Below, one piece after another: positions 4,463 to 25,788 of a stretch of 35,868 nt of DNA (its first letter is position 1; every line of letters begins with the position of its first letter). The stretch spans positions 1 to 35,868 of the forward strand of contig JAMNXM010000003.1 of assembly GCA_023653145.1 (NCBI GenBank), read 5' to 3'. The position numbers and the translations under genes are program-made. Origin of the DNA: Minisyncoccota bacterium (GTDB taxonomy: Bacteria; Patescibacteriota; Minisyncoccia; Phycocordibacterales; Phycocordibacteraceae). The notes under the pieces were generated by a model. That model ran no database searches. It saw nothing but the letters and a program-made list of their open reading frames with translations, and was not told the origin of the DNA.

Positions 4463-4819
4463 ATGTCTAAACTCACTCCAAAATCAAAGACAGCACAGCG
4501 CGAGCGCCGACACCGCCGCGTCCGCGGAACGGTCAGTGGCACTGCAGAGCGCCCACGTCTTGCCGTTTTTCGTTCTAACAAGTACGTGTACGCACAACTT
4601 ATTGATGACGATAAGGGAGTAACGATCGTTGCTGCATCAACCATTGGCGGTCGCAATATGTCGCAGATGGAGCAGGCAAAGACGGTAGGTACTCAGATTG
4701 CAAAGGCAGCGGCAGAGAAGCGGATTACTAAGGTCGTGTTTGATCGTGGCGGGTTTCAGTACGGTGGGCGCATTGCAGCGCTTGCTGATGCGGCTCGTGC
4801 GGCAGGACTTCAATTTTAA
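4463..4819 (+). CDS. rplR: 50S ribosomal protein L18
   Basis: [42 protein letters not shown]...[26 protein letters not shown]. Confidence 0.96.
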
Positions 4820-4824
4820 CTAGT

Positions 4825-5415
4825 ATGACTGACGAAACACCAGCAGCTCCGCTCACTGAAAACGCACCAGTCGAAAGCACGTTAGTGCAGGCGCCACAGC
4901 CAGAGCGCCGTGACCGTGGTGGCCGTGGCCGCAATGATAAGAACCGCCGTGGTCCACAGCGTGGACGCCGCGACGAGAAGCCTCGTTCAGAGTTTGACCA
5001 AAAGATCATCCAGCTCCGCCGCGTTGCGCGTGTGGTCGCAGGAGGTCGCCGTTTCTCATTCTCTGCAGTAGTGGTCGCCGGAGATCGTAAGGGACGCGTC
5101 GGTATCGGTATCGGCAAGGGTGCAGACACTGCGCTCGCCGTCGACAAGGCGTTCCGTGCCGCAAAGCGCACCATGTTCCGCATCCGCACTACCGAGTCTA
5201 TGTCTATCCCGCACGACGTGATGGCAAAGAACTCATCAGGTATCGTCGAGATCCGTCCAGCACCTGACCGCGGTATTGTTGCAGGTTCATCGGTAAAGAC
5301 CTTGCTCGAACTTGCTGGTGTAAAGGACGTCACCGCAAAGATCCACTCTGGTTCAAAGAATAAGTTGAACATCGCACGCGCCGCATACGACGCACTTCGT
5401 AAACTCAAAAAATAA
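4825..5415 (+). CDS. rpsE: 30S ribosomal protein S5
   Basis: RRVARVVAGGRRFSFSAVVVAGDRKGRVGIGIGKGADTALAVDKA; extended charged N-terminus. Confidence 0.96.
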   Translation: MTDETPAAPLTENAPVESTLVQAPQPERRDRGGRGRNDKNRRGPQRGRRDEKPRSEFDQKIIQLRRVARVVAGGRRFSFSAVVVAGDRKGRVGIGIGKGADTALAVDKAFRAAKRTMFRIRTTESMSIPHDVMAKNSSGIVEIRPAPDRGIVAGSSVKTLLELAGVKDVTAKIHSGSKNKLNIARAAYDALRKLKK

Positions 5416-15868: not shown

Positions 15869-16052
15869 GTGGAGGTGGAGGGTATTGCCCGCGACTCGTG
15901 GGCTCACCTTCGTTCGCCCACGGTCTGGGCACCGCCTCGCGACTCGTCGATACGACGAGTAACGCTCCGGCGCTCATTACCCTCACGCATGCAAAGTAGT
16001 TTGCATGCTCACCCTACAAATAAAAAGACTGCCTTACGGCAGTTTTTATTTG
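15869..16052 (-). repeat. Palindromic tmRNA-3'-end-associated element
   Basis: GTGGAGGTGGAGGGTA at 15869-15884 duplicates 16052-16067 (tmRNA 3' end). Inverted copy GCTCATTACCCTC at 15972-15984. Internal hairpins; core shared with the tRNA-Ile element. Confidence 0.75.
16014..16052 (-). terminator. Intrinsic terminator of ssrA
   Basis: Minus strand ACAAATAAAAACTGCC-GTAA-GGCAGTCTTTTTATTTGT. Confidence 0.75.
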
Positions 16053-16435
16053 TGGAGGTGGAGGGTAATGAGCCCTCGTCCAAAGAAGGTCTTGTGAGCA
16101 TTGCTACGCTGTCTAGTGTGTTTCGAGGTTTAAGTACTACAGTAAGAATCACACAAGATAATGCAGTACCGATCTCGTGATCTTATCTACTACGTGAGCA
16201 GGGCAGTAGACCAGCCGTATGGTTATTACACTCGTCTGACCCTATGCGGCGTCAGGGGACGAGCGCCGTCCGCTCAATGGCAGACGGGTCGGTACTTACG
16301 CAACTGCGAATGCAGGAGTGAAGTACGGACTTGCAACAGGTTTCACACTGTTGGTGCTCGAGATTTTAGGTGTTCTTGAGCAATCACCACAGCGCACACA
16401 AACAAGGAATTTCTTTGTCGAATCTGGTCACCCCC
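16053..16435 (-). ncRNA. ssrA: Transfer-messenger RNA (tmRNA), CCA not encoded
   Basis: Minus strand starts GGGGGTGACCAGATTCGACA and ends GGACGAGGGCTCATTACCCTCCACCTCCA. Acceptor stem GGGGGUG/CACCUCC. Internal reading frame ends ...SPYFTPAFAVA-TAA. smpB lies immediately upstream. Confidence 0.9.
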
Positions 16436-20286: not shown

Positions 20287-20360
20287 GCGCCTGTAGCTCA
20301 GTTGGTTAGAGCACGGAGCTTATACCTCCGCGGTCCTTGGTTCGAGTCCAAGCAGGCGCA
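20287..20360 (+). tRNA. tRNA-Ile(UAU), CCA not encoded
   Basis: Full cloverleaf; acceptor GCGCCUG/CAGGCGC; anticodon stem CGGAG-CTTATAC-CTCCG gives anticodon UAU; T-arm CTTGG-TTCGAGT-CCAAG. Confidence 0.93.
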
Positions 20361-20374
20361 CACAGTACACACAC

Positions 20375-20396
20375 ATCCCGCCTGCGCGGGATTTTG
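20375..20396 (+). terminator. Terminator after tRNA-Ile
   Basis: ATCCCGC-CTGC-GCGGGAT followed by TTTG. Confidence 0.55.
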
Positions 20397-20542
20397 TGAC
20401 TGTGTGCGAGCCGGAGCCATGTTTTACGTCTCGTAAAACCGCGAGGCGGGGCCTGCGTGCACACGTGAACGTAGGTGAGCGTGTGACATGTGGGCCACTA
20501 GAACTAATCCCGAATCGCGGGCGAGTCCAACCAGGCGCACAC
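20397..20542 (+). repeat. Palindromic tRNA-Ile-3'-end-associated element
   Basis: CGAGTCCAACCAGGCGCACAC at 20522-20542 duplicates tRNA bases 20343-20363 with one mismatch. GTGTGCG left arm is inverted. Core CGCGAGGCGGGGCC and hairpin loop GAACGTAGGTGAG are shared with the tmRNA element. Confidence 0.75.
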
Positions 20543-20547
20543 TTTTA

Positions 20548-21126
20548 CTACGTAACCGTTGGCAACTCGCGCGGAATGTCGAGGTACACCTCACCACGGC
20601 GCAGTGTCTTGCGCTCCACCACCTCGCGCCCCTCGGCGTCCGTGTAGGTGACTTCAACCACGTCTTCACTTACACGTTCTTTGGCATCCGCTAGGTCTGT
20701 GCCAGTTGCAGTGCGCTCGGTCTGTATCTCAGTTGCGAGTGCTCGCAGTTCTTCTTCTCGACCCCAGAGGAGTGCTTGCGCATTCGCAACCGCTACGTCT
20801 GGGCTGTAGCCTCGGGCAGCAATCTGCCATAAGTCGTGCGACGTACCGTCGCATCCCATCGCCTCAGCGGCTGCCGCCATAGTAGGGTGGAAGTCGCCAG
20901 TCAAAGTGTATCCGCCGTAGCCTGGACCCGGGACGTCGGACGCCTCTATGAGATCCATGCCTAAGAGTAGAGCAGCGAGCGCGTGGCATGCCTCGTGATA
21001 GGCCGTACTGCCTATGGCGTGCTCTACCACGGCGCCCTCGACACGCGCTACCGACACACTCATGCCCCCGACAGTACGTACCGCCTCAGCCTCATTGAGC
21101 CCTAGGTGTACCCGCTCAAAGCCCAT
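20548..21126 (-). CDS. Stand-alone M41 (FtsH peptidase domain)-like putative metalloprotease
   Basis: YHEACHALAALLLGMDLIEASDVPGPGYGGYTL parallels Fts[45 protein letters not shown] parallels TTGPSNDLQ. Confidence 0.7.
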   Translation of the reverse strand: MGFERVHLGLNEAEAVRTVGGMSVSVARVEGAVVEHAIGSTAYHEACHALAALLLGMDLIEASDVPGPGYGGYTLTGDFHPTMAAAAEAMGCDGTSHDLWQIAARGYSPDVAVANAQALLWGREEELRALATEIQTERTATGTDLADAKERVSEDVVEVTYTDAEGREVVERKTLRRGEVYLDIPRELPTVT

Positions 21127-24981: not shown

Positions 24982-25066
24982 GGAGACGTGTCAGAGTGGT
25001 CGAATGTGCCCCCTTGCTAAGGGGGTAGGGCGCAAGCCCTCGTGGGTTCGAATCCCACCGTCTCCG
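24982..25066 (+). tRNA. tRNA-Ser(GCU)
   Basis: GGAGACG...CGTCTCC-G; anticodon arm CCCCC-TTGCTAA-GGGGG; long variable arm; T-arm GTGGG-TTCGAAT-CCCAC. Confidence 0.92.
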
Positions 25067-25073
25067 CTACGAC

Positions 25074-25106
25074 AAAAAAGAATAGCGACCAGCTATTCTT
25101 TTTTTG
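25074..25106 (+). terminator. Terminator after tRNA-Ser(GCU)
   Basis: AAAAAAGAATAGC-GACCA-GCTATTCTTTTTTT. Confidence 0.8.
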
Positions 25107-25113
25107 TTGTCGT

Positions 25114-25221
25114 GCGTGTAGGGATGGGATTCGAACGACGGAGCGAGCGCAGGCGAGTGAGTCGGTGCCCAGAGCAGTGTCAGCAGGCACTGACTCGCGG
25201 GCGAATCCCACCGTCTCCGCT
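25114..25221 (+). repeat. Palindromic tRNA-Ser-3'-end-associated element, copy 1
   Basis: CGAATCCCACCGTCTCCGCT at 25202-25221 is identical to 25049-25068. Left arm GGGATTCG is inverted. GAGTCGGTGCC/GGCACTGACTC stem. Confidence 0.75.
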
Positions 25222-25261
25222 GCAAAAAATAAGCCAGCATGTGCTGGTTTTATTTTTTGCC
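25222..25261 (+). terminator. Second terminator hairpin downstream of the tRNA-Ser element
   Basis: GCAAAAAATAAGCCAGCA-TG-TGCTGGTTTTATTTTTTGC. Confidence 0.75.
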
Positions 25262-25263
25262 AC

Positions 25264-25332
25264 GGTGGGATGAGAAGGGCGCGAGTGCGCGCAGCATCCA
25301 GGCTCCGAGTCGGAGCGAGGAGGAATCCCACC
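25264..25332 (+). repeat. tRNA-Ser-3'-end-associated element, degenerate copy 2
   Basis: GGTGGGAT ... ATCCCACC enclosing inverted repeat; GAATCCCACC at 25323-25332 repeats the T-arm sequence; inner GCTCC-GAGTC-GGAGC hairpin. Confidence 0.6.
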
Positions 25333-25389
25333 ACCTTTGTAATCAACGCGTCGTAGGTACGGCTTCCTAAAGTAACATACACTGTATAT

Positions 25390-25788
25390 ATGGAAGGATA
25401 TCTGCAGTACGCCGCATGGCTCAAACCTTCGTGGGCACCTCCCGCCTGGCTCTTTGGACCTGTGTGGTCGGTCTTGTACGCACTTATTGCGGTTTCGTTT
25501 GGATATGTGTTTTACCGTTACTTCATGGGGACTATACCTGCCGTAGTTGCACTCCCATTTGCACTCAACCTTATCTTTAACATCGCGTTTACTCCCATCC
25601 AGTTTGGGCTTGGGAGCCTGTGGCTTTCGTCAGTCGACATCTTGCTGGTATTCGCGACCTTGGCGTGGGCACTCTACGTTATCTATCCATACGCGCCCTG
25701 GGTGACATACATCAATCTTCCGTACCTCCTCTGGGTCGCGTTTGCTACTGTGCTCCAACTTACTATCTTTGCACTCAACTCGTTCTAA
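25390..25788 (+). CDS. tspO: TspO/MBR family protein
   Basis: KPSWAPPAWLFGPVWSVLYALIAVSFGYVFYRYF...LNLIFNIAFTPIQFGLGSLWLSSVDILLV; TACACT-N6-ATG. Confidence 0.9.
   Translation: MEGYLQYAAWLKPSWAPPAWLFGPVWSVLYALIAVSFGYVFYRYFMGTIPAVVALPFALNLIFNIAFTPIQFGLGSLWLSSVDILLVFATLAWALYVIYPYAPWVTYINLPYLLWVAFATVLQLTIFALNSF

What the first reader, a model, noticed from the sequence alone, without database searches (positions are those of the whole stretch)
20361..20542. Structured element downstream of tRNA-Ile that ends in a second copy of the tRNA 3' half and shares a covarying core with the tmRNA element
Seen directly: tRNA-Ile bases 20343-20363 (CGAGTCCAAGCAGGCGCACAC) recur 179 bp downstream at 20522-20542 with one mismatch. 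Between them is a non-coding palindrome. In RNA-sense orientation it reads GTGTGCG (antisense of the acceptor tail) - GGAGC - hairpin TTTTACG/CGTAAAA - CGCGAGGCGGGGCC - hairpin CACACG[loop TGAACGTAGGTGAG]CGTGTG - TCGCGGGC - tRNA 3' end. The element behind tmRNA has the same order: GGAGC - hairpin ACTCGTCG/CGACGAGT - CGCGAGGCGGTGCC - hairpin GTGGGC[loop GAACGAAGGTGA]GCCCAC - TCGCGGGC - tmRNA 3' end. Stem sequences differ but stay complementary, while loop and core sequences are kept. That is a covariation signature of a selected DNA or RNA fold. Inference: either a miniature, integrase-less element that targets tRNA-like 3' ends and restores them, with breakpoints in the T-loop, or a processing/regulatory RNA domain that mimics the T-arm. 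I do not recognise it as a described family.
Basis: partly seen in the sequence, partly recalled or inferred. Interest (0 to 1): 0.88.

Follow-up and report, generated by a model that had tools for sequence, protein, structure and literature searches.

The report
Gene-less mobile hairpin behind tRNA genes
Behind many tRNA genes of Paceibacteria (Parcubacteria) sits a tiny, gene-free, strictly folded DNA insert that carries a short reverse-complement copy of whichever gene it sits in and leaves that gene intact; it looks like a previously undescribed, target-adapting mobile element, although the enzyme that moves it is unknown.

Summary
A covariance model finds the element in 9/10 genomes of the genus, 61/106 of the family and 119/387 of the class. 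About 75% of 173 copies lie within 120 nt behind a tRNA or tmRNA; others lie behind efp, rpsI and topA. The layout is constant: gene, hairpin, S' (antisense of the gene's own 3' part), an 86-nt two-hairpin CORE, then a displaced copy of the gene's end. CORE covaries strongly (92-94% paired against 63-66% shuffled). S' matches its own target from -2 to +9, with a sharp edge. Near-identical COREs carry different S' at different targets, so S' is rewritten when the element moves. Empty and filled orthologous sites and identical tandem units indicate mobility. Element-rich complete genomes have no reverse transcriptase, Y1 transposase, serine recombinase or IS110 (G005 lacks all four); only the housekeeping Xer is left. 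The window's Ile locus is nested. No Rfam family matches. Shown: family, fold, target match. Inferred: S' acts as a guide. Unknown: the enzyme.

The parts
20287..20361 (+). tRNA-Ile(tat), target gene, intact
   Evidence: ARAGORN and Rfam
20357..20366 (+). gene copy of the target site, CG|CACACAGT; insertion point between 20358 and 20359 (type II register, tRNA 3' end)
   Evidence: sequence; register found in 26 copies
20375..20392 (+). hairpin with CTGC loop between tRNA and S' (ATCCCGC-CTGC-GCGGGAT, then TTTT)
   Evidence: sequence; CTGC-loop hairpin in 54/164 copies before the core against 6/164 after
20399..20408 (+). S': antisense of the target site, ACTGTGTGCG
   Evidence: sequence; rule over 122 copies
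20409..20495 (+). CORE (P1 and P2 hairpins) of the younger, complete element
   Evidence: R2 82.7 bits, E 8e-14
20496..20498 (+). start of the displaced target copy (CAC)
   Evidence: sequence; register as
20515..20521 (+). right end (TCGCGGG) of an older, degraded T-loop (type I) element
   Evidence: same block as the right end of the tmRNA core; inference
20522..20542 (+). displaced copy of the tRNA-Ile 3' part belonging to the older insertion, 1 mismatch
15973..15984 (-). S' of the tmRNA element (GAGGGTAATGAG on the minus strand)
   Evidence: 13-nt perfect inverted repeat with tmRNA 16061-16073
15887..15972 (-). CORE of the tmRNA element
   Evidence: R1 108 bits (training member), R2 96.5 bits
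15864..15886 (-). displaced copy of the tmRNA 3' end
   Evidence: 92% identical to 16047-16070
16050..16435 (-). tmRNA gene (target)
   Evidence: Rfam RF00023, 66.9 bits
24982..25067 (+). tRNA-Ser(gct), target gene
25124..25135 (+). S' of the Ser element (ATGGGATTCGAA)
   Evidence: sequence
25136..25202 (+). CORE of the Ser element, short version
   Evidence: R2 42.6 bits, E 6e-6
25203..25222 (+). displaced, still exact copy of the tRNA-Ser 3' end
   Evidence: sequence

Best explanation
A family of gene-less insertion elements of Paceibacteria. SHOWN: each copy inserts at GNN|C in the 3' part of a gene (tRNA T-loop 55|56, tRNA 3' end 71|72, tmRNA, topA; with deviations efp and rpsI), leaves the gene intact through a duplicated 3' part, and consists of a hairpin, a segment S' of about 11 nt antisense to its own target (-2 to +9), and an 86-nt CORE of two covarying hairpins whose right edge abuts the displaced target copy. 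SHOWN: CORE is not tied to a target, whereas S' is. INFERRED (about 0.4): S' is the targeting part. As RNA or single-stranded DNA of the gene-sense strand it pairs with the target strand; CORE is the scaffold that a protein recognises; joining occurs at -1|+1, two nucleotides inside the pairing; a new S' is written when a new target is used. UNKNOWN: the enzyme (host Xer, or a helper active only at times) and how S' is rewritten.
For: Distribution: 9/10, 61/106 and 119/387 genomes; an exact-pattern scan of GTDB species returns 54 contigs, all labelled candidate-phyla (mostly Paceibacteria) or unclassified 'bacterium' MAGs. Fold: 30/31 pairs with changes on both sides, 92% paired against 63% shuffled and 31-45% slid; 94.5% against 66% in 97 further copies; single copies fold the same way unaided. 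G.T against A.C mismatches 57:7 and 94:30, so the gene-sense strand is the one that folds. S': reverse complement found upstream in 67% against 9% permuted and 1.4% shuffled; located by +1..+10 only, agreement stays at 110-112/122 at -1,-2 and falls to 40/122 at -3. With the T-loop fixed by the tRNA fold alone: S' and displaced copy 70, S' only 24, displaced only 2. Rewriting: core 92% identical at tRNA-Cys in G075 and tRNA-Ala in G070, both arms perfect to their own gene. Mobility: empty and filled orthologous sites at tRNA-Cys (flank identity 160/201, 188/235) and tRNA-Leu(taa) (130/167); identical tandem units (G005 Trp; L284). Non-tRNA targets: topA with a ~55-nt duplication, efp in three genomes and rpsI.
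Against: No movement was observed and gain against loss at the empty sites is not rooted. No enzyme is linked to the element, and none of the recombinase or RT families tested other than Xer is present in all element-rich complete genomes. S' could be a by-product of insertion (the other strand of a staggered end) kept by template switching rather than a guide. About a third of S' arms have no close match within 350 nt upstream. The displaced copy differs from S' in many old copies. Alignments used for pair counts were fitted to the model.
Confidence: 0.55

Rival explanations
1. Single-stranded forked-hairpin recombination as in CTXphi or integron cassettes: S' and the displaced S pair to form an attachment stem, CORE is the fork, and the host Xer exchanges one strand; the 2-nt extra complementarity stabilises the exchange.
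For: The layout is strikingly alike: CTXphi has two inverted sites about 90 nt apart that fold into a forked hairpin, and integration is decided by base pairing that stabilises the strand exchange (PMC3089051). Xer is the only tyrosine recombinase in G005, G036 and G000. Singly folded copies show the three-way junction.
Against: Targets share no dif-like sequence, only GNN|C. When gene copy and displaced copy differ, S' follows the gene 76 times and the displaced copy 3 times, so the stem is not what is kept. Xer is equally present in genomes without elements.
Confidence: 0.22
2. S' is not functional: insertion joins CORE to a staggered end (bottom strand to -2, top strand from +1), so that S' is the other strand of the target, and template switching between S and S' keeps it complementary.
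For: The 2-nt offset between S' (to -2) and displaced S (from +1) and the palindromic GNN|C fit a cut with 2-nt 3' overhangs. Hairpin-prone repeats are known to be corrected by template switching (general knowledge).
Against: The offset is constant in both tRNA registers and complementarity stops sharply at -3; correction by template switching would be expected to run variable distances. Some S' carry GA opposite target GA instead of the complement.
Confidence: 0.22
3. Ordinary remnants of tyrosine-integrase islands that used T-loop and 3'-end sites and have lost their genes.
For: Restored target plus displaced fragment is the island signature (PMC4383910); T-loop and 3' end are known integrase sites; one integrase can be redirected between T-loops by matching attP (PMC1762012).
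Against: No integrase other than Xer in most element-rich genomes; about 180 bp with a covarying core in some 60 sampled genomes; no larger version with genes was seen; attP does not predict an antisense copy of each target; no match of three core patterns in 2.9 million viral contigs.
Confidence: 0.08
4. A host RNA element that acts on the upstream gene (3' processing, termination, antisense control or modification of the T-loop).
For: On the gene strand in every case examined; RNA-like G.U pattern; S' is better kept than the displaced copy (24 against 2).
Against: Sits behind efp, rpsI and topA as well as tRNAs; patchy among relatives, with empty orthologous sites; T-run between tRNA and core in 72/125 cases; no promoter-like site at the Ile copy.
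Confidence: 0.08
5. REP or REPIN-like element moved by a Y1 (RAYT) transposase.
For: G000 has a RAYT-like gene (G000:C19) and many family members have Y1 transposases.
Against: G005, G036 and G070 are 99-100% complete, hold 12, 20 and 3 elements and no Y1 transposase. REPs are 20-40 nt (PMC3733652 abstract) and have no duplicated target.
Confidence: 0.02

Closest known systems
CTXphi attP(+) forked hairpin and Xer-dependent integration (PMC3089051)
   Same: No own recombinase; inverted arms about 90 nt apart around two folded branches; short base-pairing homology at the junction
   Different: One fixed kind of target (dif) against many gene ends; a phage genome against about 180 bp without genes; arms here follow each target
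Integron attC sites and cassettes
   Same: Structure kept while sequence varies; folded single strand plausible; mismatched or extrahelical bases
   Different: Insertion into gene 3' ends; arms match the target; the core is a two-hairpin junction; no dedicated integrase besides the single Xer
Tyrosine-integrase genomic islands in tRNA and tmRNA genes (Islander, PMC4383910)
   Same: Target restored, displaced 3' fragment, T-loop and 3'-end sites, tandem arrays
   Different: No integrase, no genes, 100-200 bp instead of kilobases, an antisense copy of the target inside, a covarying core
REP/REPIN and RAYT elements
   Same: Short, non-autonomous, hairpin-based, many copies per genome
   Different: Target duplication, gene-end targeting, no Y1 transposase needed in the same genome
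IS110 bridge RNA and IS200/IS605 guide sequences
   Same: A short element-borne segment that pairs with the target near the junction
   Different: No IS110 protein in 30 genomes; no Y1 transposase in several; segment of about 11 nt next to a different scaffold
Retron msr-msd RNA
   Same: Inverted arms closing two hairpins
   Different: No reverse transcriptase in G005, G003, G004, G036; arms match the neighbouring gene

Membership tests
Tyrosine-integrase tDNA island | displaced fragment and restored target | tested here: met
Tyrosine-integrase tDNA island | integrase gene inside the island | tested here: not met
   elements have no room for one; only the housekeeping Xer elsewhere in G005, G036, G000
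REPIN / RAYT | cognate Y1 transposase in the genome | tested here: not met
   none in G005, G036, G070
IS110 / bridge RNA | DEDD_Tnp_IS110 recombinase | tested here: not met
   0 of 30 genomes
Retron, group II intron, other retroelement | reverse transcriptase in the genome | tested here: not met
   absent in G000, G003, G004, G005, G007, G036, G010, G012
Serine-recombinase element | serine recombinase in the genome | tested here: not met
   absent in G005, G003, G004, G209, G031, G429; present in many others
CTXphi-like Xer-dependent element | inverted arms about 90 nt apart, forked hairpin, no own recombinase | tested here: met
CTXphi-like Xer-dependent element | arms are dif-like Xer sites | tested here: not met
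   targets share only GNN|C
Integron attC | recombination of the folded strand by IntI | not testable with these tools
   needs an assay; the Xer sequences were read but not tested for an IntI-type insertion
Known Rfam RNA family | score above gathering threshold | tested here: not met
MITE | terminal inverted repeats shared with an autonomous transposon | tested here: inconclusive
   no autonomous partner or recurrent neighbouring protein found

The most novel reading that the evidence does not exclude
A naturally reprogrammable, gene-less insertion system: a guide of about 11 nt joined to a small folded scaffold directs insertion at GNN|C in gene 3' ends and is rewritten for each new target, using a housekeeping enzyme of ultra-small bacteria.
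Probability: 0.3. Interest if true: 0.97.

Novelty: categorically new. Interest (0 to 1): 0.86.

Why it matters
Mobile elements that choose their target by base pairing are few and depend on a dedicated protein. Here a whole bacterial class carries tiny gene-free inserts whose target-matching part changes with each site while the scaffold stays. If S' directs insertion, this is a new, very small programmable insertion principle; if not, it is a new way of generating target-matched inverted copies. Either way it explains a recurrent, unannotated feature behind tRNA genes in candidate-phyla genomes, and it gives a concrete test through GNN|C, the -2 to +9 match and empty sites.

Tried and rejected
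RAYT/REPIN (no Y1 transposase in element-rich complete genomes; the core-like hit at G000:C19 is just the start of the RAYT gene). Target-primed reverse transcription by a resident RT: attractive because of the precise right edge and the variable duplication, but no RT in G005, G003, G004 or G036. Serine recombinases (2-nt 3' overhangs fit) are absent from G005, G003, G004 and G209. IS110 bridge RNA: none. Phage-borne element: three core patterns, no match in viral contigs. Neighbour genes: only orthologous neighbours and spurious antisense-tRNA ORFs recur. Vertical, target-specific lineages: the nearest core shares the target in only 13/114 and the genome in 16/114. Known RNA families: none. 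Literature searches for Paceibacteria tRNA-downstream repeats found nothing fitting.

Full report
WHAT WAS CHECKED. A search of the window's own genome (633 kb, 48 contigs) found further copies behind Val(gac), Gly(gcc), Glu(ctc), Glu(ttc), Ala(tgc), Arg(ccg), Arg(tct), Lys(ttt), Cys(gca) and, inside the window, Ser(gct). About a third of its tRNA genes carry one; several carry tandems.

THE FOLD. Single copies fold, unaided, into two hairpins P1 and P2 that are closed by a third stem. A model from four copies (R1), then one from 52 (R2), was used for searching. On 43 distinct sequences 92.0% of pair cells are standard pairs against 62.6% after shuffling and 31-45% when the partner is slid; 30 of 31 pairs show changes on both sides. 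On 97 further sequences, mostly from other genera and families, the figures are 94.5% against 66.0%, with 29 of 31 pairs changed on both sides. These alignments were fitted to the model, so the numbers lean towards it, but the slid controls leave little doubt. G.T cells outnumber A.C cells 57:7 and 94:30. Hence the gene-sense strand is the one that folds; this is what RNA would show, but single-stranded DNA is not excluded. P1 and the tip of P2 contain tandem G-A/G-A steps (read directly from the sequences).

DISTRIBUTION. 9 of 10 genomes of the genus, 61 of 106 of the family and 119 of 387 of the class, in 83 of 298 genera. An exact-pattern scan of GTDB species gave 54 contigs, labelled Kaiser-, Adler-, Nomura-, Yanofsky-, Moranbacteria and relatives, one each Falkow- and Saccharibacteria, and unclassified 'bacterium' MAGs. 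Three patterns found nothing in 2.9 million viral contigs. Rfam has no matching family.

LAYOUT. Every well-kept copy reads: gene, tail with a hairpin that is often terminator-like, S', CORE, displaced copy of the gene's 3' part. Of 173 usable copies 131 lie within 120 nt of a tRNA or tmRNA 3' end on the same strand and 150 within 600 nt. The rest include protein genes: topA, where a duplication of about 55 nt restores the reading frame; efp in three genomes (one search shows the EF-P C-terminus; L141, L155 and L160 share it; assignment from the sequence by eye); and rpsI. Two lie in the rRNA operon. In 26 of 33 tRNA-end cases the insertion register is the same (71|72 by tRNA numbering), and in 96 cases it is in the T-loop at 55|56.

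THE ANTISENSE ARM. S' is the reverse complement of the gene at the insertion site. Its 12-mer is found upstream with at most 2 mismatches in 67% of copies, against 9% when arms are permuted among copies and 1.4% when letters are shuffled. Located by positions +1 to +10 only, agreement is 93-99% from +1 to +8, about 90-92% at -1 and -2, 33% at -3, and declines after +9. The arm therefore has a sharp edge on the CORE side two nucleotides beyond the junction. This also holds at targets whose -2,-1 bases are not TT (37/47 and 35/47). Those targets share G at -3 (40/47) and C at +1 (38/47), so the site is GNN|C; efp and rpsI deviate at +1. Where the displaced copy differs from the gene, S' agrees with the gene 76 times and with the displaced copy 3 times. 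Because that set was chosen by S' match, a second test fixed the T-loop from the tRNA fold alone: both arms kept in 70, S' only in 24, displaced copy only in 2. S' is thus better kept than the displaced copy, by selection or by copying from the neighbouring gene.

S' IS REWRITTEN. Core similarity follows neither target nor genome closely: the nearest neighbour has the same target in 13 of 114 cases and the same genome in 16. COREs about 90% identical sit at different genes, each with arms matched to its own gene; the tRNA-Cys copy of G075 and the tRNA-Ala copy of G070 are 92% identical in the core and perfect in both arms.

MOBILITY. At tRNA-Cys, G018 has an empty site while G045 and G090 are filled; the downstream flank begins right after the tRNA in the empty genome and right after the displaced copy in the filled ones (160/201 and 188/235 identity). 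At tRNA-Leu(taa), G090 and G102 are empty and G077 is filled (130/167 between G090 and G077). Two identical tandem cores occur in G005 and an array of three units, identical where not masked, in L284. Gain was not distinguished from precise loss.

THE WINDOW LOCUS. The Ile locus is nested (inference from the parts). The complete copy is of the 3'-end type: S' ACTGTGTGCG 20399-20408, CORE 20409-20495, displaced CAC from 20496. The block TCGCGGG 20515-20521 with the 21-nt repeat 20522-20542 is the right end of an older T-loop insertion.

ENZYME. No resident enzyme explains it. G005 (100% complete, 12 elements) has no Y1 transposase, no reverse transcriptase, no serine recombinase, no IS110 and a single tyrosine recombinase, the Xer that nearly all genomes have. 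G036 (99%, 20 elements) lacks Y1, RT and IS110. No protein family recurs next to the elements.

MECHANISM. Best reading: S' recognises the target by pairing, CORE is the recognised scaffold, and joining happens two nucleotides inside the pairing; the enzyme is the housekeeping Xer or a helper present only at times. The closest described mechanism is CTXphi, where two inverted sites about 90 nt apart fold into a forked hairpin and base pairing at the junction decides integration (PMC3089051). It differs because S' follows the gene rather than the displaced arm and because targets share no Xer site. A second reading is that S' is the other strand of a staggered end with a 2-nt overhang and is kept complementary by template switching. 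The data do not decide between these.

VERDICT. A real, widespread, apparently undescribed family; mobile in all likelihood; mechanism open.

Noticed in passing
L083, L097, L061, L092, L099, L151, L153: start of the displaced copy: Some displaced copies carry a small extra hairpin after CGA (for example CGA-aaccgtattcgggg-TTCCC), as if a further element part were inserted there.
   Followed up: no
S' arms of L066, L072, L105, L119, L122, L127, L134, L142, L184, L195 and others: A class of S' arms reads GGAC-GA-GAA instead of GGAC-TC-GAA, putting GA opposite the target's GA (tandem G-A mismatch).
   Followed up: partly
L086 and L088, rRNA operon: 16S rRNA genes with an inserted ORF that looks like a LAGLIDADG endonuclease; a conserved stretch in the spacer (GAGAGCCACATATGAGCTCTCAA..GGGACAGAATAGGCGGAACAAAAGAGCGCAC) precedes the element.
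   Followed up: partly
hairpins before CORE, many loci; window 20375-20392: Hairpins and terminators before the core often have the tetraloop CTGC: 54 of 164 copies against 6 of 164 in control stretches.
   Followed up: partly
window 25004-25424 and spurious ORFs near tRNAs: Antisense tRNA T-arms in the elements give spurious ORFs with GFEP, IRT or SNP motifs that could be annotated as hypothetical proteins.
   Followed up: no
G000:C19 about 4730-5400 (L013): REP-associated (Y1) transposase-like gene in the window's genome; its start codon region matches a core pattern by chance.
   Followed up: yes
window 20548-21126, minus strand: ORF with an HEACH motif next to the element and next to an ftsH-like gene; possible metallopeptidase-like protein.
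   Followed up: no
G000 tRNA-Asn, tRNA-Pro and tRNA-Phe downstream regions (L027, L025, L042): Extra displaced tRNA 3' fragments without a recognisable core, probably remnants of older insertions.
   Followed up: no
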